In this document: positions 6,555-64,000 of the stretch, one piece after another
Position numbering within the stretch: the stretch's first letter is position 1
Layout: every line of letters begins with the position of its first letter
Program-made: the position numbers and the translations under genes
Origin: Microvirga alba
GTDB lineage: Bacteria; Pseudomonadota; Alphaproteobacteria; Rhizobiales; Beijerinckiaceae
Assembly: GCF_015694465.1 (NCBI RefSeq)
Contig: NZ_JADQDO010000001.1
Coordinates: 868,001 to 932,000, forward strand
DNA length: 64,000 nucleotides
Direction: 5' to 3'
Notes under the pieces: generated by a model
Databases searched by the model: none
The model's input: only the letters and a program-made list of their open reading frames with translations
What the model was told of the DNA's origin: nothing

Positions 6555-9500
6555 ATGACGCGCATTCTTCAAGATATCGGGTTCGTCCACCTGCATGTGC
6601 ATTCCTCGTATTCCTTGCTCGAGGGTGCGCTGAAGATCGCGCAATTGGCAAAGCTGGCGACGGCGGACAAACAGCCCGCGCTGGCCTTGACCGACACCAA
6701 CAATCTGTTCGGGGCGCTGGAGTTCTCGGAAAAGCTCGCGGGCTCGGGCATCCAGCCCATCGCGGGCGTTCAGCTCTCGGTTCTGTTCGAGGAGCCCGAT
6801 CCGGCTGCGCGCCTCGCACCGCTGCCCAGCAATATCGTGCTGCTGGCGCAGAACGATGAGGGCTACCGCAACCTGATGCGGCTCGTGAGCCACGCCTATT
6901 TCGGCGTCCCGCTCGGCGAGGCCCCGCGCGTCGCGGCCCCGATATTGTCGACCCATTGCGAGGGGCTGATCGCGCTCACCGGCGGGTTCACCGGCCCGCT
7001 CGACAATGCCTTGCGCAACGGCGGACGCCAGGATCTGGCGCAGGCGCGGCTCGATGTGCTCAAGCACGCGTTCGGCCATCAGCTTTATGTCGAAATCCAG
7101 CGCCACGGGCTTACCGATGAGCGGTTGGTCGAGGGCGAGCTGATTGCGCTTGCCGACCGCAATGGCCTGCCGATCGTCGCCGCCAACGAGCCGTTTTTCT
7201 CGACGGCGAGCGACTACGAAGCGCATGACGCGCTGCTCGCCATCGCCGACGGGCGCATCGTCTCCGACGACAATCGCCGCCGCTTGTCGCCGCAGCATGA
7301 TTTCAAGACGCGCAAGCAGATGATGGAGCTTTTTGCCGATCTGCCGGACGCGTTGCATGCCAGCGTCGAGATCGCCATGCGCTGCGCCACCCGCGTCACC
7401 ACGCGCAAGCCGATCCTGCCAAGCTTCGGCGTCGGCTCCGACGCGGTGGTCTTCGACGAGGGCGAGGAGCTCAAGCGGCAGGCGGAGGCGGGGCTGGTCC
7501 AGCGCCTGGCGGCGCACGGCCCGGCTCCCGGCCTGACCGAGCAGGATTATCATGACCGGCTCGCGTTCGAGGTCGAGGTCATTCGCCGGATGAAATATCC
7601 GGGCTACTTCCTCATCGTGGCCGACTTCATCAAATGGGCGAAGGACCACAACATCCCGGTTGGGCCGGGCCGTGGGTCTGGCGCGGGTTCGCTCGTCGCC
7701 TATGCGCTGACGATTACCGATCTCGATCCGTTGCGGTTCGGCCTGCTGTTCGAGCGCTTCCTCAACCCGGAACGCGTCTCGATGCCCGACTTCGATATCG
7801 ACTTCTGCGTCGAGGGGCGCGAGCGCGTCATCGAATACGTGCAGCAGCGCTACGGCGAGGAGCAGGTCGCGCAGATCATCACGTTCGGTACGCTGCTGGC
7901 GCGCGGCGTGATGCGCGACGTCGGCCGCGTGCTCGAAATGCCCTACGGCCAGGTGGACAAGCTGACGAAGCTCGTTCCGCAGAACCCGGCCAACCCCGTC
8001 ACCCTGGCCCAGGCCATCGAGGGCGAGCCCAAGCTCCAGGCCGCGATCGAGGAGGAGCCCGTCGTCGCGCGCATGCTCAACATGGCGCAGAAACTGGAGG
8101 GCCTGCACCGCCACGCTTCGACCCACGCGGCGGGCGTGGTGATCGGCGACCGTCCGTTGCAGGAACTCGTGCCGCTCTATCGCGACCCGAAGACCGGCAT
8201 GCGCGTGACCCAGTACAACATGAAATGGGTCGAGCAGGCTGGGCTGGTGAAGTTCGACTTCCTCGGCCTCAAAACGCTGACCGTGCTGAACACTGCCGTG
8301 GAGCTGATCCGGCGCACGGGCGTCGAGGTCGATCTCTCGGCCCTGCCGCTCGACGACAGGAAAACCTACGAAATGCTCTGCCGTGGCGAGACGGTCGGCG
8401 TGTTCCAGGTGGAAAGTGTCGGCATGCGCAAGGCCCTCGTGGAGATGGAGACCGACCGCTTCGAGGACATCATCGCCCTCGTCGCGCTCTATCGCCCGGG
8501 CCCGATGGCGAACATCCCGGTCTATTGCGCGCGCAAGCTCGGCAAGGACGAGCACAACAAGAAGGACTGGTACTCGCACCCCAAGCTGGAGCCGGTTCTG
8601 AGGGAGACCTTCGGCATCATCGTCTATCAGGAGCAGGTGATGGAGGTGGCGAAAGTCCTCTCCGGCTACTCGCTCGGTGACGCCGACTTGCTGCGCCGCG
8701 CCATGGGTAAGAAGATCAAATCGGAGATGGACGCGCAGCGCGAGCGCTTCGTCTCCGGCGCGGTCGGTGGCGATCTCGATAAGGTCAAGGCGAACGAAAT
8801 CTTCGATCTTCTCGCCAAGTTCGCGGATTACGGCTTCAACAAGAGCCACGCGGCGGCCTATGCGCTGGTCGCCTTCCAGACGGCTTATCTGAAGGCCAAT
8901 TTCCCGGTCGAGTTCATGGCGGCGTCGATGACGCTCGATCTCGACAACACGGACAAGCTCTCTGAATTCCGCCGCGAGGCCCAGCGCCTCGGCATCAAGG
9001 TCGAGCCGCCGTCGGTCAATCGCTCGGGCGTGGTCTTCGACGTGAAATACGACGCGGAGGGCAAGGGCGCGATTCTCTACGCGCTCGCCGCGGTCAAGGG
9101 CGTCGGGCGGCAGGCCATCGAATCGCTCATCGAAGCGCGCGGCGACAAGCCCTTCAAGGATCTTGCCGATTTCGCCCGGCGCATCAATCCGCGCATGCTC
9201 AACAAGCGCACCCTTGAGAACCTGATCGCGGCGGGCGCGTTCGATGAGCTGGAGCCGGATCGCGCCAAGGCGAGCGCGTCGGTCGATGCCATGATGAGTC
9301 TCGCCCAGCAATCGCACGAAGCCGCGAATGGCGGCATGATCGACATGTTCGGCGGCGTCGCCTCCGCGGATGTGCAGCTGCGCATTTCGCACTACGAGCC
9401 CTGGCCGCCCTCAATCAAGCTGCAGAAGGAATACGACGCGGTCGGCTTCTTCCTGTCAGGGCATCCGCTCGATGAGTACGGCGACCTGTTGAAGAAGCTG

Positions 9501-10028
9501 CGGGTACAGACCTGGGTCGATTTCGCCCGGTCCGTGAAAGCGGGCAACTCGGTCGGGCGCGTCGCCGCCACCGTGCTCGACCGCCAGGAGCGCCGCACCA
9601 AGACCGGCAACAAGATGGGCATTCTCACCCTCTCGGATCAGACCGGGCATTTCGAGGCCATCATCTTCTCCGAAGGGCTGCAGCGCCTGCGCGAGGTTTT
9701 GGAACCCGGCAGCGCCGTCGTCCTCATGCTCCAGGCGGGCGTCGAGGGCGAAGAGGTGAGGGCGCGGATCGGCATGGCCGAGCCGCTGGAAGAGGCTGTC
9801 GCCAAATTCCAGAAGGGCATGCGCATCTTCCTGCGCGACGAGCGCCCCATCGCCAGCGTCTATGAACGGCTACGGGCGCGCGGGGAGGGGGAAGTGTCCC
9901 TTGTCCTGATCCTCGACGAGGGCGACCGGGAGGTAGAGGTGAAGCTTCCCGGTAAGTACCTCGCCACGCCCCAGATCGCCGGCGCGCTCCGCGCCGTGCC
10001 GGGGGTGGTTGACGTGCAGATGAGTTGA
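6555..10028 (+). CDS. dnaE: DNA polymerase III subunit alpha
   Basis: 1157 residues, the normal DnaE1 length. An N-terminal PHP domain starts at FVHLHVHSSYSLLEGA (about residues 10-25) and continues in ALTDTNNLFGALEF. The C-family polymerase core has GPGRGSGAGSLVAYAL near residue 370 and the catalytic aspartates in MPDFDIDFC near residue 412. Helix-hairpin-helix and OB-fold regions (VGRVAATVLDRQERRTKTG near residue 1000) follow. It is the replicative polymerase subunit of the Pol III holoenzyme. It is transcribed alone after the peptide gene's terminator; a palindromic repeat follows directly. The antisense strand carries very long open frames caused by GC-rich codon use, with no protein resemblance. 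Confidence 0.97.
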   Translation: MTRILQDIGFVHLHVHSSYSLLEGALKIAQLAKLATADKQPALALTDTNNLFGALEFSEKLAGSGIQPIAGVQLSVLFEEPDPAARLAPLPSNIVLLAQNDEGYRNLMRLVSHAYFGVPLGEAPRVAAPILSTHCEGLIALTGGFTGPLDNALRNGGRQDLAQARLDVLKHAFGHQLYVEIQRHGLTDERLVEGELIALADRNGLPIVAANEPFFSTASDYEAHDALLAIADGRIVSDDNRRRLSPQHDFKTRKQMMELFADLPDALHASVEIAMRCATRVTTRKPILPSFGVGSDAVVFDEGEELKRQAEAGLVQRLAAHGPAPGLTEQDYHDRLAFEVEVIRRMKYPGYFLIVADFIKWAKDHNIPVGPGRGSGAGSLVAYALTITDLDPLRFGLLFERFLNPERVSMPDFDIDFCVEGRERVIEYVQQRYGEEQVAQIITFGTLLARGVMRDVGRVLEMPYGQVDKLTKLVPQNPANPVTLAQAIEGEPKLQAAIEEEPVVARMLNMAQKLEGLHRHASTHAAGVVIGDRPLQELVPLYRDPKTGMRVTQYNMKWVEQAGLVKFDFLGLKTLTVLNTAVELIRRTGVEVDLSALPLDDRKTYEMLCRGETVGVFQVESVGMRKALVEMETDRFEDIIALVALYRPGPMANIPVYCARKLGKDEHNKKDWYSHPKLEPVLRETFGIIVYQEQVMEVAKVLSGYSLGDADLLRRAMGKKIKSEMDAQRERFVSGAVGGDLDKVKANEIFDLLAKFADYGFNKSHAAAYALVAFQTAYLKANFPVEFMAASMTLDLDNTDKLSEFRREAQRLGIKVEPPSVNRSGVVFDVKYDAEGKGAILYALAAVKGVGRQAIESLIEARGDKPFKDLADFARRINPRMLNKRTLENLIAAGAFDELEPDRAKASASVDAMMSLAQQSHEAANGGMIDMFGGVASADVQLRISHYEPWPPSIKLQKEYDAVGFFLSGHPLDEYGDLLKKLRVQTWVDFARSVKAGNSVGRVAATVLDRQERRTKTGNKMGILTLSDQTGHFEAIIFSEGLQRLREVLEPGSAVVLMLQAGVEGEEVRARIGMAEPLEEAVAKFQKGMRIFLRDERPIASVYERLRARGEGEVSLVLILDEGDREVEVKLPGKYLATPQIAGALRAVPGVVDVQMS

Positions 10029-10038
10029 TAGCGCGCCG

Positions 10039-10179
10039 TCATTCCGGGGCCGCGCAGCGGAGCCCGGAACCCAGAACCGTCGACGTGCTGGGACAAGCCA
10101 CGCCCGTTCCCGCTGCATCCTTTCCGGAACCGTTGCGTTTATGGGTTCCGGGTTCTCGCTCCGCTCGCCCCGGAATGAC
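10039..10179. repeat. GTCATTCCGG extragenic palindromic element, copy d
   Basis: Left arm GTCATTCCGGGGCCGCGC and right arm CCGCTCGCCCCGGAATGAC flank a middle of about 60 nt. It begins only 11 nt after the dnaE stop, so it would form the 3' end of the dnaE mRNA. Confidence 0.85.
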
Positions 10180-10187
10180 GCAATCCC

Positions 10188-10293
10188 CTTCCGATGTCTC
10201 GCCCTCAGCCGAAGGTTGCATCTCGAAGGAGGGTCCAGCGCTGGAGACGCCTCGCCCTTCGAGACGGGCTTTAGGCCCTCCTCAGGGTGAGGC
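10188..10293. repeat. CTTCGAGACGGGC / CCTCAGGGTGAGG type extragenic repeat
   Basis: Contains CTCGCCCTTCGAGACGGGC...GGCCCTCCTCAGGGTGAGG, an imperfect inverted repeat that recurs before pyrH (14430-14526). Together with copy d it fills the 330-nt gap between dnaE and the ABC genes; nothing else is visible there. Confidence 0.7.
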
Positions 10294-10362
10294 TCTGTTG
10301 AGGCTGGGAAGGGGACTGGAAAAGGTTCAGCGCGACGGCATTTCATGCTAGGCAGCGTTCCC

Positions 10363-11334
10363 ATGAAACCGCTCGACAACAGACACGCTCAGCCTTCCGG
10401 CAACCCGGCGGGTTCGGTCATTTCGGTCACGGGGCTAGGCAAGACCTACGCTTCCGGCTTCCAGGCGCTGCGGAATGTGGATCTTGAGATTCGCCGGGGC
10501 GAGATTTTCGCGCTGCTGGGGCCGAACGGGGCCGGGAAGACGACGCTGATCAGCATTATCTGCGGCATCGTCAATCCGAGCACGGGCGTCGTGCTTGCCG
10601 ACGGCCATGACATCGTTCGCGATTACCGGGCAGCCCGCACGAAGATCGGCCTCGTTCCGCAGGAATTGTCGACGGACGCCTTCGAGAGCGTCTGGGACAC
10701 GGTGAAGTTCAGTCGCGGCCTGTTCGGCAAGGCGGCAAACCCAGCCCTTATCGAGAAGATCCTCAAGGACCTGTCCCTCTGGGAGAAGAAGGACAGTAAG
10801 ATCATGACGCTCTCCGGCGGCATGAAGCGCCGTGTCATGATCGCCAAGGCCCTGTCGCACGAGCCGACGATCCTGTTTCTCGACGAGCCGACCGCGGGTG
10901 TCGATGTGGAGTTGCGGCGGGACATGTGGGAGATGGTCCGCGCCTTGAGAGACAACGGCGTCACCATCATCCTGACCACCCACTACATCGAGGAGGCCGA
11001 GGAAATGGCCGACCGGATCGGGGTGATCAACAAGGGCGAGATCATCCTGGTCGAAGACAAGACCGTGCTGATGCATAAGCTCGGAAGGAAGCAGCTCATC
11101 CTGCAGCTCCAGAATCCGCTCATGGCGCTTCCCGCTGCCCTTTCCGGCTACGATCTCGCCTTGGCGGAAGGGGGCTTCCAGCTCGTCTATACCTTCGACG
11201 CGCAGAGCGAAGAGACCGGCATTGCCGGTCTGCTGCGGCTGCTCGGGGAGCAGGGAATCGACTTCAAGGATCTTCAGACCTCGCAAAGCTCGCTGGAAGA
11301 CATCTTCGTCGATCTGGTCAGGGGGCGCGCATGA
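10363..11334 (+). CDS. ABC transporter ATP-binding protein (YadG/DrrA-like)
   Basis: 323 residues from the ATG at 10363; an ATG at 10345 would add six. Motifs: Walker [10 protein letters not shown] (about residues 52-60), Q-loop [10 protein letters not shown], signature LSGGMKRR (near 148), Walker [13 protein letters not shown] (near 170) and switch His TTHYIEE. A C-terminal extension of about 90 residues follows, ending in [16 protein letters not shown], the usual tail of ABC-2 drug/polysaccharide-type exporters. It overlaps the permease gene by 4 nt (ATGA), so the two form an export complex. The substrate is unknown. Confidence 0.88.
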
Positions 11335-12092
11335 ACCTTCACGCGATCAAGGCCATCTATCTCTTCGAGATGGCGCGCACCTGGCGCACGCTGATGGAGA
11401 GCATCGCCTCGCCGGTGATCTCCACCTCGCTCTATTTCATCGTCTTCGGCTCGGCCATCGGCTCGCGCATCGCGGACGTCGACGGGATCAGCTATGGCGC
11501 GTTCATCGTCCCGGGGTTGATCATGCTGTCGATCCTCACCGAGAGCATCTCGAATGCGGCCTTCGGCATCTACATGCCGAAATTCTCAGGCACCATCTAC
11601 GAGCTGCTCTCGGCTCCCGTCTCCGCAATGGAGACGGTGATCGGCTATGTGGGGGCGGCCGCGAGCAAGTCGATCATTCTCGGCACCATCATTCTGGTGA
11701 CCGCCCGGCTGTTCGTGGATTTTTCCGTCGACCATCCCGTCTGGATGGTGGCCTTCCTCGTGCTGACCGCCGTCACCTTCAGCCTGTTCGGCTTCATCAT
11801 CGGGATCTGGGCGGACAGTTTCCAAAGGCTGCAGTTGATCCCCCTGATGATCGTGACGCCGCTCACCTTCCTGGGCGGGAGCTTCTATTCCATCAACATG
11901 CTGCCGCCGTTCTGGCAGAATGTCGCCCTGTTCAACCCCGTGGTCTACCTCGTCAGCGGCTTCCGCTGGAGCTTTTACGGGGTGGCGGACGTGAATATCG
12001 CGGTCAGCCTCGGCATGACCCTGGTCTTCATGCTGGCCTGCCTGACGGGGATATGGTGGATTTTCCGTACGGGGTATCGGCTCAAGGCCTGA
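11331..12092 (+). CDS. ABC-2 type transporter permease (YadH-like)
   Basis: 253 residues with about six membrane helices and the ABC-2 signature near the C-terminal half ([19 protein letters not shown], then [17 protein letters not shown]). The start overlaps the stop of the ATPase gene (ATGA). With that ATPase it forms a two-gene exporter of the YadGH/NodIJ-like group; the cargo cannot be told from sequence. The pair stands alone between dnaE and rpsB. Confidence 0.88.
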
Positions 12093-12104
12093 GGCGGGGA
12101 GAGC

Positions 12105-12152
12105 ATTTCGGTTCGTTCGGGGCAGTTTTCGCGTCTAGCGTGACCGAAATCG
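12105..12152. repeat. Inverted repeat ATTTCGGT...ACCGAAAT after the ABC exporter
   Basis: Eight-base inverted arms about 30 nt apart in the gap between the exporter and the rpsB promoter. There is no T tract, so it may be a processing/termination structure or another repeat type. Confidence 0.35.
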
Positions 12153-12181
12153 CCCGATCCCGCCCCTGATGGCGCTCTGAC

Positions 12182-12210
12182 TTGCCATTCGATGGGTTTT
12201 CCCTTATACG
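12182..12210 (+). promoter_or_regulatory. Candidate rpsB promoter
   Basis: TTGCCA (12182-12187) and TATACG (12205-12210) are 17 nt apart, matching the sigma-70 consensus at five and four positions. The implied leader of about 95 nt contains the 12-bp palindrome CCGGTCGACCGG (12266-12277), a possible hairpin in front of rpsB. Confidence 0.5.
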
Positions 12211-12314
12211 CGCGTCCATCCCACACGCGGAGCTTGCCTCATGATTCAATGAGGTGTCCCGGTGGCCGGTCGACCGGTCCACTGCTCCGCGGAGGCTCAA
12301 CCGGAGAAAAGACA

Positions 12315-13325
12315 ATGGCTCTTCCTGAATTTTCCATGCGTTCGCTGCTCGAAGCCGGCGCGCATTTCGGCCACCAATCCCACCGCTGGAACCCGAAGAT
12401 GGGTCAATACATCTTCGGCACCCGCAACAACATCCATATCATCGACCTCGCCCAGACGGTTCCGATGCTGCACCGCGCCCTCCAGGCCGTCAGCGATACG
12501 GTCGCCAAGGGCGGTCGCGTGCTGTTCGTCGGCACGAAGCGTCAGGCTGCCGATTCGGTCGCCGATGCGGCCAAGCGTTCGGCTCAGTACTACGTGAATG
12601 CTCGCTGGCTCGGCGGCATGCTGACCAACTGGAAGACGATTTCTGGCTCGATCTCGCGTCTGCGCAAGGTCGACGAGATCCTCGCCGGCGGCGGCCAGGG
12701 CCTCACGAAGAAAGAGCGCCTCATGCTCGCTCGTGAGAAGGACAAGCTCGAGCGCGCTCTCGGCGGCATCAAGGACATGGGCGGCACGCCCGACCTGATC
12801 TTCGTCATCGACACCAACAAGGAGCAGCTCGCGATCCAGGAGGCCCGTCGCCTCGGTATCCCGGTTGCAGCGATCGTCGACACCAACTCCGATCCGGACG
12901 GCATCACCTTCCCGGTCCCGGCGAACGACGACGCGGGCCGCGCGATCCAGCTCTATTGCGACCTGATCGCCCGCGCTGCGCTCGACGGTATTTCCCGTGG
13001 CGCTGGCGCCATGGGCATCGATATCGGCGAGTCCGAGAACCCGATGGCTGAAGAGCTTCCGGCTCACGACGCCGGTTCGGAGCAGGGCGAGACGTTCGAG
13101 CGCCTGGCCGCTCCGCGTGGCGCGCCGGACGATTTGACCAAGCTCACGGGCGTTGGCCCGCAGCTCGAGAAGAAGCTCAACGAGGCTGGCGTGTTCCATT
13201 ACTGGCAGTTCGCCGCCATGCAGCCGGGCGACGTCGCCCAGCTCGACAAGGACCTGAAGCTCAACGGCCGCGTCGAGCGCGATGGCTGGCTTGGCCAGGC
13301 CCGGGCGATGATCGAAGCCGCCTAA
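12315..13325 (+). CDS. rpsB: 30S ribosomal protein S2 with C-terminal helix-hairpin-helix extension
   Basis: 336 residues from the ATG at 12315, which has GGAG 9-12 nt upstream; the in-frame sequence before it is not S2-like. Residues 1 to about 230 are canonical S2 ([52 protein letters not shown]). An acidic linker then leads to a tail (about 272-336) with [30 protein letters not shown] and [16 protein letters not shown]. This resembles the helix-hairpin-helix tail also seen on some alphaproteobacterial L21 proteins. Standard S2 is about 240-260 residues, so the tail is a lineage feature. It is followed by tsf, the nearly universal partner. Confidence 0.95.
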
Positions 13326-13375
13326 GACCGGCTTGGCGCCGCACGTTTTTGCGGTGCTGCTTGAGTGAAGTGATC

Positions 13376-13402
13376 GAGCCCGGCGTTCCTTGAGCGCCGG
13401 GC
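13376..13402 (+). terminator. Intercistronic hairpin rpsB-tsf
   Basis: GAGCCCGGCG-TTCCTTGA-GCGCCGGGCTC is a strong stem followed by CCTATT, with no proper T tract. It lies in the rpsB-tsf gap, where many bacteria attenuate transcription or process mRNA to set the S2:EF-Ts ratio. A smaller CCGCA/TGCGG hairpin sits at 13338-13357. Confidence 0.5.
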
Positions 13403-13435
13403 TCCCTATTGTATGAACCCGTGAAAGGACGAGCC

Positions 13436-14365
13436 ATGGCGAACATTACCGCTGCGATGGTGAAAGAGCTGCGCGAGACGACCAGCGCCGGCATGATGGA
13501 CTGCAAGACGGCCCTCAACGAGACCAACGGCGACCTTGAGGCGGCGATCGACTGGCTGCGCAAGAAGGGCCTCTCGAAGGCCGCCAAGAAGGCTGGCCGC
13601 GTTGCGGCTGAGGGCCTTGTCGCAGTGGAATCGTCGGGCCACACGGCTACGATCCTCGAAGTGAACTCCGAGACGGACTTCGTCGCCCGTAACGACCAGT
13701 TCCAGGCTTTCGCCCGCGAAGCGGCCAAGATCGCTCTCATGGGCAAGGGCACGGTTGAGGATCTCGAAGCCGCGCATTTCCCGGGTTCGCAGACGACCGT
13801 GAAGGACCGCCTTCAGGAGCTGATCGCCACCATCGGCGAGAACATGACCCTGCGCCGCGTCTCGAAGCTTGAAGTCTCCAAGGGTGTGATCGCATCTTAC
13901 GTCCACAACGTGGTCAGCGAAGGCCTCGGCAAGATCGGCGTTCTTGTGGCGTTGGAATCGGAAGGCGACGTGACCTCCCTGAGCACGCTGGGCCGCCAGA
14001 TCGCCATGCACATCGCCGCGACCAACCCGGTCGCCGTCGACGCGTCGGGCGTCGATGCCGCGACGGTCGAGCGCGAGAGCAACATTCTGCGTGAGAAGAA
14101 TGCCGGCAAGCCGGAGAACGTCATGCAGAAGATCATCGAGAGCGGCCTCAAGAGCTACTACAAGGAGGTCACCCTCCTCGAGCAGCCCTTCGTGCACGAT
14201 TCCTCGAAGACCGTGGCTCAGGTTCTGAAAGAGGCCGAGTCGAAGGCTGGTAAGCCGGTGACCCTCAAGAGCTTCGTCCGCTATGCCCTCGGGGAGGGCA
14301 TCGAGAAGGAGGAAGCTCCTGACTTCGCCGCCGAGGTCGCCGCGGCGGCCGGTACGAAGGCCTAA
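13436..14365 (+). CDS. tsf: Translation elongation factor Ts
   Basis: 309 residues from the ATG at 13436, preceded by AAAGGAC. The N-terminal UBA-like module is [20 protein letters not shown]. The EF-Tu-contacting core has the TDFVARN motif near residue 80, followed by two subdomains (KIGVLVALE and [12 protein letters not shown]). The length is close to the 307-310 usual in Rhizobiales. EF-Ts recycles EF-Tu-GDP in the cytoplasm. It lies between rpsB and pyrH and ends in a clear terminator. Confidence 0.97.
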
Positions 14366-62665: not shown

Positions 62666-63691
62666 CTATGGCCTTTTGTTGAGCCCGATCATGCCCTCGA
62701 TCCGGCCTGCCACACCGCCAAGCCCTATCTTTGACATCCAAACGGTGAAGATGCTCGGTTTGTTGGGCGTGTCGGCGCCGCCATCGCTTTTCAGCCAGAA
62801 GCGCTTGACCGTGGAGATTTTCGTCAGGTCAATATCCCTGAATCCGAATGGCGGCAGGGTGTGCGCCGCAAATCCTGGATAACCCGCATATCCGCCGCTG
62901 CCGGGATGCACCACGAACCCCGCTTCACGCTTTTTTTTCGGATCACGTTTGATCTTTTCGTAAATGCGGTTTCCGTCCATCACGACGCCGAGATACTGAC
63001 CGCTGGGATCAACGATCTCCGTGTCGTCCCACGGGAACGAGCCGATCCAGTTGCCTCTTTTATCGAACAGGTAACGATCGCCTTGATAACGACTGTAGGC
63101 GATCCAGTCGCCGACCGAATTGAAATAATGCACCACTCTTGCGGGTGCGTCTCCGACTTTTAATTGCGGAATGGGCAATTGCGGATCGGGAGCGGGCAGC
63201 GCGGTTGCATCGGCAGGAGCGGACGGCGGCGCATCCAAGCTCTCATTCGGCAGGCCGGAAGGAACCGGGCGCGGCTGTGTTGCTTTGTCCCGAGGCTTTT
63301 TCAGGGGCACGAGCGTATGCGTGGACACCCAACCGATCTCCCGATCGTCCGGCACGATGTAGGCGCGACCTTGTTCCATCCGCTCGACGCGGCAGGTGAG
63401 TGTTCTCTTGTCGCCAGGAGGGCGGTACGTAACAGTCGCTCCGACGTGGAGCTGGTTCCCCTCGGCATCCTTGAGTGCTTGGCCGTCAACGGGGCCGTTC
63501 GTTGCCGAGCCGGCGCCCGCACTCATCTCGCTAGCCGCTTGAGAGCGCTCGACGGAGGCAAGGATGAGCCGAGCGACTTCGCGATGGCGATTGCCGACGC
63601 TTCCCTGCGTTGGTCGCGTCCGTTCCGGATGCCAGGTGCCGCCGATTTTGGCGAGCAGCTCTGCCACAAGCTCGACTTCTACATCGGACAA
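62666..63691 (-). CDS. Uncharacterised multi-domain protein, paralogue A
   Basis: 341 residues from the TTG at 63691, which has GAGGAAACC upstream. Three parts are visible. An N-terminal helical segment has VAELLAKIGGTWHPERTRP and REVARLILASVE (1-60). A small beta domain has GATVTYRPPG, LTCRVERMEQGRAYIVP and REIGWVSTHTL (about 82-130). After a Pro-rich linker comes a beta-repeat region RYLFDKRGNWIGSFPWDDTE / IVDPSGQYLGVVMDGNRIYE (about 200-250), which looks like the 4-fold beta-flap arrangement of WG-type strands. The last third is Gly/Pro-rich. No signal peptide or membrane helix. I do not recognise the family with confidence. The next leftward gene repeats its second domain. Confidence 0.7.
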   Translation of the reverse strand: MSDVEVELVAELLAKIGGTWHPERTRPTQGSVGNRHREVARLILASVERSQAASEMSAGAGSATNGPVDGQALKDAEGNQLHVGATVTYRPPGDKRTLTCRVERMEQGRAYIVPDDREIGWVSTHTLVPLKKPRDKATQPRPVPSGLPNESLDAPPSAPADATALPAPDPQLPIPQLKVGDAPARVVHYFNSVGDWIAYSRYQGDRYLFDKRGNWIGSFPWDDTEIVDPSGQYLGVVMDGNRIYEKIKRDPKKKREAGFVVHPGSGGYAGYPGFAAHTLPPFGFRDIDLTKISTVKRFWLKSDGGADTPNKPSIFTVWMSKIGLGGVAGRIEGMIGLNKRP

Positions 63692-63850
63692 TTTGGTTTC
63701 CTCACTAGACCGTGTTTTTACGACTTCTTTAGAGAGTCGCTTGCCCCATCGTTTAGCAAAACATTGTGCGCTTGTTGACGTTGAGGAAGAGAAAGAATTC
63801 GTTCCTTTCGAGGAGAAGCCCAGTCGGTGCAGCGCTGCTCGAAAGGGATT

Positions 63851-64000
63851 TCACTGCTTCGATAGCAGGAGTGTTTCGGGAGACACCCAACCGATCTCGC
63901 GATGGGCCGGGACGAGATAGGCGCGTCCGCGTTCCATTCGCTCGATGCGGCAGGTGAGCGCTCTCTTTTCACCGGGAGGGCGATAGATCACGGTCGCTCC
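63851..64000 (-). CDS. Uncharacterised protein, paralogue B, C-terminal end (5' part outside window)
   Basis: 49 codons plus stop, open to the right edge. The sequence GATVIYRPPG...LTCRIERMERGRAYLVP..REIGWVSPETL matches the second domain of paralogue A at about 35 of 49 positions, but the protein ends there (stop at 63851), without linker or beta-repeat region. It is therefore a shorter relative, or one with only the first two domains, encoded just upstream of paralogue A on the same strand. Confidence 0.65.
   Translation of the reverse strand, partial: GATVIYRPPGEKRALTCRIERMERGRAYLVPAHREIGWVSPETLLLSKQ

What the first reader, a model, noticed from the sequence alone, without database searches (positions are those of the whole stretch)
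62666..64000. Two adjacent paralogues of an uncharacterised protein family
The GATV-YRPPG / LTCR-ERME-GRAY / REIGWVS domain occurs in a 341-residue protein and again, at about 35 of 49 identical positions, at the end of the next gene. The domains following it differ (beta-repeat region in one, immediate stop in the other). Tandem duplication with C-terminal change is typical of rapidly evolving surface, toxin or conflict systems, although no such function can be shown here.
Basis: partly seen in the sequence, partly recalled or inferred. Interest (0 to 1): 0.55.

Follow-up and report, generated by a model that had tools for sequence, protein, structure and literature searches.

The report
Microvirga paired proteins, one flower-tailed
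Two neighbouring genes of a soil bacterium belong to an unnamed protein family found here only in the genus Microvirga, and one of them carries an extra flower-shaped beta domain related to Tubby proteins; it looks like an old, conserved pair of unknown function rather than a fast-evolving weapon.

Summary
Protein A (341 aa, window 62666-63691, minus strand) and gene B (141 aa; ends at 63851, starts outside the window at 64276) are alike over most of B, not only its last 49 residues. Both are coding and under purifying selection. The shared unit is a predicted helical hairpin plus a small barrel (tentatively Tudor/KOW-like). It was found in 48 of 48 genomes of the genus (Microvirga) searched, at 1-13 places each, and in no other genus searched. 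Eleven of 48 have a tandem A/B-type locus, eight of them intact. The tree favours an old duplication and a single fusion. A's C-terminus is most likely a 4-fold beta-flower (PF21784): 11 of 11 flower-bearing relatives match at E <= 1, A itself below cut-off, and the predicted model has eight strands. The closest other flowers found lie on phage contigs and an Actinomyces plasmid. Nothing found supports a toxin, surface or conflict role. Most likely A is a soluble two-module adaptor: the shared module binds a partner, the flower docks to a membrane or second partner, and B is the module without the dock. Sequence anatomy is well supported; folds are predictions; mechanism is inference.

The parts
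62666..63691 (-). gene A, 341 aa (hairpin + small barrel + linker + beta-flower + C-terminal helices)
63518..63691 (-). A residues 1-58: predicted two-helix hairpin shared with B and the other genus copies
   Evidence: helices 3-16 and 34-58; its profile gave only weak short matches outside the genus
63296..63460 (-). A residues 78-132: predicted five-stranded small beta-barrel, tentatively Tudor/KOW-like, shared with B
   Evidence: (best Z 8.6, rmsd 1.9 over 58 residues; local pLDDT only 49-62 per block)
63140..63295 (-). A residues 133-184: low-confidence linker
   Evidence: pLDDT about 27-31
62822..63139 (-). A residues 185-290: probable 4-fold beta-flower (PF21784): seven strands, a Gly/Tyr/Pro stretch, then a short eighth strand (284-286)
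62690..62752 (-). A residues 314-334: predicted C-terminal helices in a basic tail
   Evidence: (pLDDT under 50)
63851..64000 (-). 3' end of gene B (last 49 codons and stop); the gene continues to position 64276 outside the window (L003:3852-4277), 141 aa in all
63692..63850 (-). 159-nt gap between B (upstream) and A; no sigma-70-like promoter and no coding-strand terminator-like site found by simple consensus scans

Best explanation
A and B are soluble modular adaptors of a genus-specific family. Shown from sequence: both contain one ~135-residue unit; only A adds a linker and a domain that matches the 4-fold beta-flower family; the genes are under purifying selection, and the tree favours an old duplication. 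Predicted: the unit is a helical hairpin plus a small Tudor/KOW-type barrel, and the flower has eight strands, the last one lying after a flexible stretch. Inferred, not shown: the hairpin-barrel unit binds a protein or nucleic-acid partner; A's flower, with its basic C-terminal tail, docks A to a membrane or a second partner, as proposed for the Tubby clan; B, the same unit without the dock, pairs or competes with A and so tunes how much partner is tethered.
For: Unit aligned in 35 copies, 34 with both halves and one (G028's broken B) cut short. The unit is used as a module: alone, twice in one 418-aa frame in G038, or with a flower. PF21784 matches 11 of 11 flower-bearing members at E <= 1, best 4.9e-5; the phage-contig relative passes the cut-off. 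Flower model: blocks of pLDDT 79-86 over residues 1-60, eight strands. Middle domain resembles mostly Tudor and KOW chains. Tandem A/B-type locus in 11 of 48 genomes, with gaps of 1-82 nt in 8 of them (G046, G014, G018, G015, G021, G036, G023, G043; the gaps depend on the start codons chosen). Old duplication. Purifying selection. No membrane helix by hydropathy.
Against: The full-length model is poor (mean pLDDT 48.9) and the barrel region reaches only 49-62 per block, so its Tudor/KOW likeness is tentative. A itself scores PF21784 below the cut-off (13.9 against 25 bits) and the genome search at E <= 0.001 finds no match in the own genome. A's C-terminal helix is only weakly amphipathic (moment 0.26; 0.29-0.71 in the other ten rows). 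No ligand, partner, localisation or expression is known. The flower's membrane role is itself a suggestion in the founding paper (PMC10584680, passages read). 37 of 48 genomes show no A/B-type locus in the listed matches, so the pair is dispensable in the genus. Its surroundings differ between genomes. In the own genome the gap is 159 nt and co-transcription is not shown.
Confidence: 0.38

Rival explanations
1. A/B are a toxin-immunity or other conflict pair, or surface proteins, diversifying fast.
For: Tandem paralogues with a changed C-terminus; related flowers turn up on phage contigs and on an Actinomyces plasmid with an AbiH-family gene about 2 kb away; in G021 the locus lies between very long repeat-rich frames (by eye).
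Against: Purifying selection, an old duplication, no membrane helix by hydropathy, no PADLOC match to A, no toxin domain for A in Pfam or NCBIfam.
Confidence: 0.1
2. A's flower is phage- or plasmid-borne cargo fused by chance to a resident gene, without a specific partnership with the hairpin-barrel unit.
For: Flowers are sporadic (a PF21784 match over the cut-off in 9 of 398 genomes of the phylum); the nearest non-Microvirga flowers found are on phage contigs and an actinobacterial plasmid; flower without the unit in G007 and as a separate frame in G023.
Against: The fused form is kept in 9 of 48 genomes with one apparent origin, and the C-terminal stretch after the flower is recognisable in these rows.
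Confidence: 0.2
3. The C-terminal domain is not a beta-flower but a MORN/YwqK-like or other beta-repeat, and the weak PF21784 match is chance.
For: Sub-threshold score for A; no chain among the 261 aligned resembles the model well (best Z 3.8); nothing at E <= 0.001 among viral models; three spaced [DNEQ]xxG motifs arise in 255 of 20000 shuffles.
Against: All 11 relatives match the same Pfam model at E <= 1; homologues in G036 and G007 are over the cut-off, the phage-contig relative too; the core of an eight-strand model comes out at pLDDT 79-86.
Confidence: 0.07

Closest known systems
[quoted passage not shown]
   Same: C-terminal half of A: eight short strands predicted, [DNEQ]xxG-type tips, last strand after a flexible Gly/Pro-rich stretch
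   Different: A's own score is below the curated cut-off; the flower is fused behind a hairpin-barrel unit and a linker, while the close non-genus flowers read here (L080, L110, L111, L074, L149, L152) are stand-alone; weaker matches also lie in frames of 636-1144 aa
Tudor / KOW small beta-barrels (SH3-like)
   Same: Middle domain of the model, five strands; 49-64 residues aligned at 1.4-3.2 A in the 50 listed rows, mostly Tudor or KOW chains
   Different: No sequence match to a solved chain better than E 0.18; ligand unknown; model confidence low there
Tubby and phospholipid-scramblase superfamily
   Same: Same Pfam clan as PF21784; phosphoinositide binding or scramblase function cited for Tubby-like proteins
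   Different: Four-fold and shorter, no demonstrated lipid binding; the clan placement is the paper's, not tested here

Membership tests
PF21784 4-fold beta-flower (A, C-terminal half) | score over the curated Pfam cut-off (25 bits) | tested here: inconclusive
   A itself 13.9 bits, not met; all 11 members of A1 match at E <= 1, best 4.9e-5; homologues in G036 and G007 over it in the genome search, those in G043, G023 and G028 below; phage-contig relative L080 25.8
PF21784 4-fold beta-flower (A, C-terminal half) | eight short strands in a shallow barrel | tested here: met
   AlphaFold2 model: eight strands, pLDDT blocks 79-86 over residues 1-60, 70-79 around the last strand; 6-row alignment; mean 62.2 over all 158 residues. 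A prediction, not a solved structure
PF21784 4-fold beta-flower (A, C-terminal half) | semi-conserved [DNEQ]xxG motif at hairpin tips | tested here: met
   Three spaced motifs in A; over the 11 A1 rows the full motif fits in 5, 11 and 8 of 11 rows, the Gly in 11 of 11 at each; 255 of 20000 shuffles of A's segment also give three spaced motifs
PF21784 4-fold beta-flower (A, C-terminal half) | hydrophobic C-terminal helix enclosed by the barrel (many, not all, members) | tested here: inconclusive
   C-terminal helices predicted at pLDDT under 50
Tudor/KOW SH3-like barrel (middle domain) | five-stranded small barrel fold | tested here: inconclusive
   Z 7.4-8.6 in the 50 listed rows, but local pLDDT 49-62 per block
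Tudor/KOW SH3-like barrel (middle domain) | binding of methylated peptide or of nucleic acid/polymerase | not testable with these tools
   no ligand data
Toxin-immunity or defence system | match to a known toxin, immunity or defence family | tested here: not met
   A: none in PADLOC or NCBIfam, only PF21784 in Pfam; B: one PADLOC match at E 0.058 over 39 residues
Secreted or surface protein | signal peptide or transmembrane segment | tested here: not met
   hydropathy only: maximum 19-residue mean 1.00 (A), 0.44 (B); for windows starting in the first 12 residues 0.73 and 0.28; no dedicated predictor was used

The most novel reading that the evidence does not exclude
A is a bacterial counterpart of Tubby-type membrane-tethered regulators: a Tudor/KOW-type reader barrel with a helical hairpin, held at the inner membrane by a Tubby-clan beta-flower and its tail, with B as its untethered twin that releases or competes for the shared partner.
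Probability: 0.1. Interest if true: 0.65.

Novelty: new variant of a known kind. Interest (0 to 1): 0.3.

Why it matters
Beta-flowers were recognised from predicted structures, and the passages read give no tested function (PMC10584680). A fused form with a soluble binding module, next to a paralogue that lacks the flower, offers a ready-made comparison of the same module with and without the dock. The unit itself looks like a genus-wide family that the libraries searched here do not name.

Tried and rejected
Fast evolution or conflict: rejected on selection, tree and library results. Non-coding repeat or pseudogene: rejected by frame statistics. The lack of annotation at the best place of all nine Microvirga plasmid records first looked odd, but two of the three records opened carry 3 and 1 features in all (the third has 478), so it says little. 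Phage origin of the hairpin-barrel unit: no relative on a viral contig, weak PHROG matches only, best 0.016; phrog_24395 gave one marginal match in 81 genomes. Wider homologues of either half: at E <= 0.1 the hairpin profile also matched in 41 of 143 genomes outside the genus and the barrel profile in 15 of 143, but only with short weak matches, best 0.0021 and 0.0049; I read these as chance. A 76-aa neighbour in G023 resembles the hairpin by eye, but hhalign gave probability 1.1%. A constant neighbour: one copy lies beside an mscS-like gene in 5 of the 14 same-genus genomes where that gene was found (against 65), so not general; 18 of the 48 same-genus genomes were not in that search. No Rfam family at the gathering threshold in L003:1-8000. 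Solved structures like the flower: best Z 3.8 among 261 chains. Viral models: nothing at E <= 0.001. No relative of the flower in the annotated phage records. Papers: none found for this family or for a function of the 4-fold flower in the searches-85 of the held library; only PMC10584680 was opened (passages), the other papers were seen in search listings, and the 2009 paper on Tubby-like proteins only as a reference line.

Full report
OBSERVATION. The window is a stretch of a 4.42-Mb genome (G000:C11:868001-932000). Gene A is 341 codons on the minus strand with a TTG start; by eye a GAGGAA stretch precedes it. The 49 residues at the window edge end a second gene, B, identical to A at 35 of 49 positions there. 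The flank shows B complete: 141 aa, 159 nt upstream of A, same strand. The likeness covers most of B and is visible in DNA as two direct repeats.

GENES, NOT NOISE. In codon alignments of 9 A, 10 B and 13 single-copy relatives, the frame has no stop, while the five other frames sum to 10-97 stops each per set, and synonymous change exceeds non-synonymous (mean pS and pN 0.58/0.30, 0.57/0.24, 0.69/0.24). This is purifying selection. Left out of these sets: the flowerless A-like copy of G021, the broken B copy of G028, and the other single copies.

DISTRIBUTION. With A or B as query, 48 of 101 genomes match, all 48 in the own genus, and 0 of 53 others. With a profile, 24 of 298 genomes of the family match, in 1 of 43 genera; in a sample of the order, 1 of 297, the own genome. 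Two contigs of the same length as named records (523,723 and 106,250 bases: Microvirga terricola and M. puerhi) place the genus as Microvirga, and all 9 plasmid records matched by B are Microvirga. Matches number 1 to 13 per genome (the genome with 13 is listed at 18% contamination, and a broken copy can count twice). The own genome has three: A, B and one on contig 19. Each half of the unit alone gives only weak short matches outside the genus. Pfam, NCBIfam and PHROGs give no match to the unit at E below 0.01.

THE PAIR. Of 48 genomes, 9 carry A with its flower (G000, G043, G028, G046, G001, G014, G018, G015, G036), each with a B-like copy next to it; in G028 the B copy falls into two frames, and in G036 the order is A then B. 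So 8 are intact by this reading. G021 has a B copy and an A-like unit without the flower. G023 has a B-like unit followed after 1 nt by a separate 172-aa flower frame. G007 has a flower frame without the unit. A tree of 38 units (10 A, 11 B, 17 single copies) puts A+B on one side of a 100/100 branch, A as one group (93/88; 89% of bootstrap trees) and B as paraphyletic (2 changes). So duplication and fusion look old relative to these species; the split in G023 and the loss in G021 would be later, by inference. A separate case: in G038 two units of the single-copy type stand in one 418-aa frame. By eye the pair lies within a few kb of a lipA-like gene in G000 and G043; the surroundings read in the other genomes differ.

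DOMAINS. The model of A is weak overall (mean pLDDT 48.9, 7-row alignment) but gives two helices (3-16, 34-58), five strands (86-129), a linker, eight strands (185-286) and C-terminal helices. The middle part resembles mostly Tudor and KOW barrels (best Z 8.6, 58 residues, 1.9 A); with local pLDDT of 49-62 per block this is tentative. The C-terminal half matches Pfam PF21784 in 11 of 11 members at E <= 1, A itself below cut-off. Modelled alone with two genus and three phage-contig relatives, blocks of its first 60 residues reach pLDDT 79-86, with eight strands in all. The alignment shows seven strands, then in the phage-contig proteins a Gly-Tyr-Pro repeat, and then a closing motif where the eighth strand is predicted. 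Stand-alone flowers in L074, L149 and L152 also end with a low-complexity linker and a short aromatic motif.

RELATIVES OF THE FLOWER. Outside the genus the nearest found are on three phage contigs (39-41% identity) and an Actinomyces oris plasmid (41.7% over A residues 189-292). PF21784 is sporadic: E <= 0.001 in 10 of 398 genomes of the phylum, 9 of the 398 with a match over the cut-off.

MECHANISM. The founding paper (PMC10584680, passages) places flowers in the Tubby clan and suggests membrane association for some. A's tail after residue 250 is basic (net +8), but its C-terminal helix is only weakly amphipathic (moment 0.26; 0.29-0.71 in the other ten rows). The hairpin-barrel unit, shared by B and the other copies and used singly, doubled or with a flower, would bind the partner. 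B would be the undocked form. These last steps are inference. Against it: no partner, no ligand, weak models, and a pair that most genomes of the genus do without.

VERDICT. It is an uncharacterised, apparently genus-specific family with an unusual fused architecture for the beta-flower; modest interest.

Noticed in passing
L080:4995-5306, L110:2998-3306, L111:3001-3318: Phage-contig proteins of 102-105 aa: beta-flower followed by GYPG repeats and a closing motif; in L080 large neighbouring frames on the other strand look by eye like portal and terminase genes.
   Followed up: partly
L161:1420-2676 (G038:C70): Two units of the family in one 418-aa frame, followed by a small protein of the YYFNL...DEEG pattern.
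   Followed up: partly
L100:6227-6721 (own contig 19), L103, L108: The third own copy sits beside an mscS-like gene; same in 5 of the 14 same-genus genomes having that gene (own included), plus L103 and L108 by reading.
   Followed up: partly
L104:6951-7181, L105:6232-6459, L107:8362-8616, L161:2689-3024: Small proteins of a YYFHL...DxEG pattern (recalled as DUF6894-like, not tested) near copies of the unit.
   Followed up: no
L097:2467-5733 and 7764-14000: In G021 the A/B-type locus lies between very long repeat-rich frames (RTX-like by eye).
   Followed up: no
L084:2992-3312: Actinomyces oris plasmid flower about 2 kb from an AbiH-family gene.
   Followed up: no
L099:6954-11733: In G007 a flower frame without the unit lies among many short frames and near a reverse-transcriptase-like frame (recalled, not tested).
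   Followed up: no
L003:4677-6087 (right of the window end): PAS-HWE histidine kinase and a receiver-domain protein, divergent from B.
   Followed up: partly
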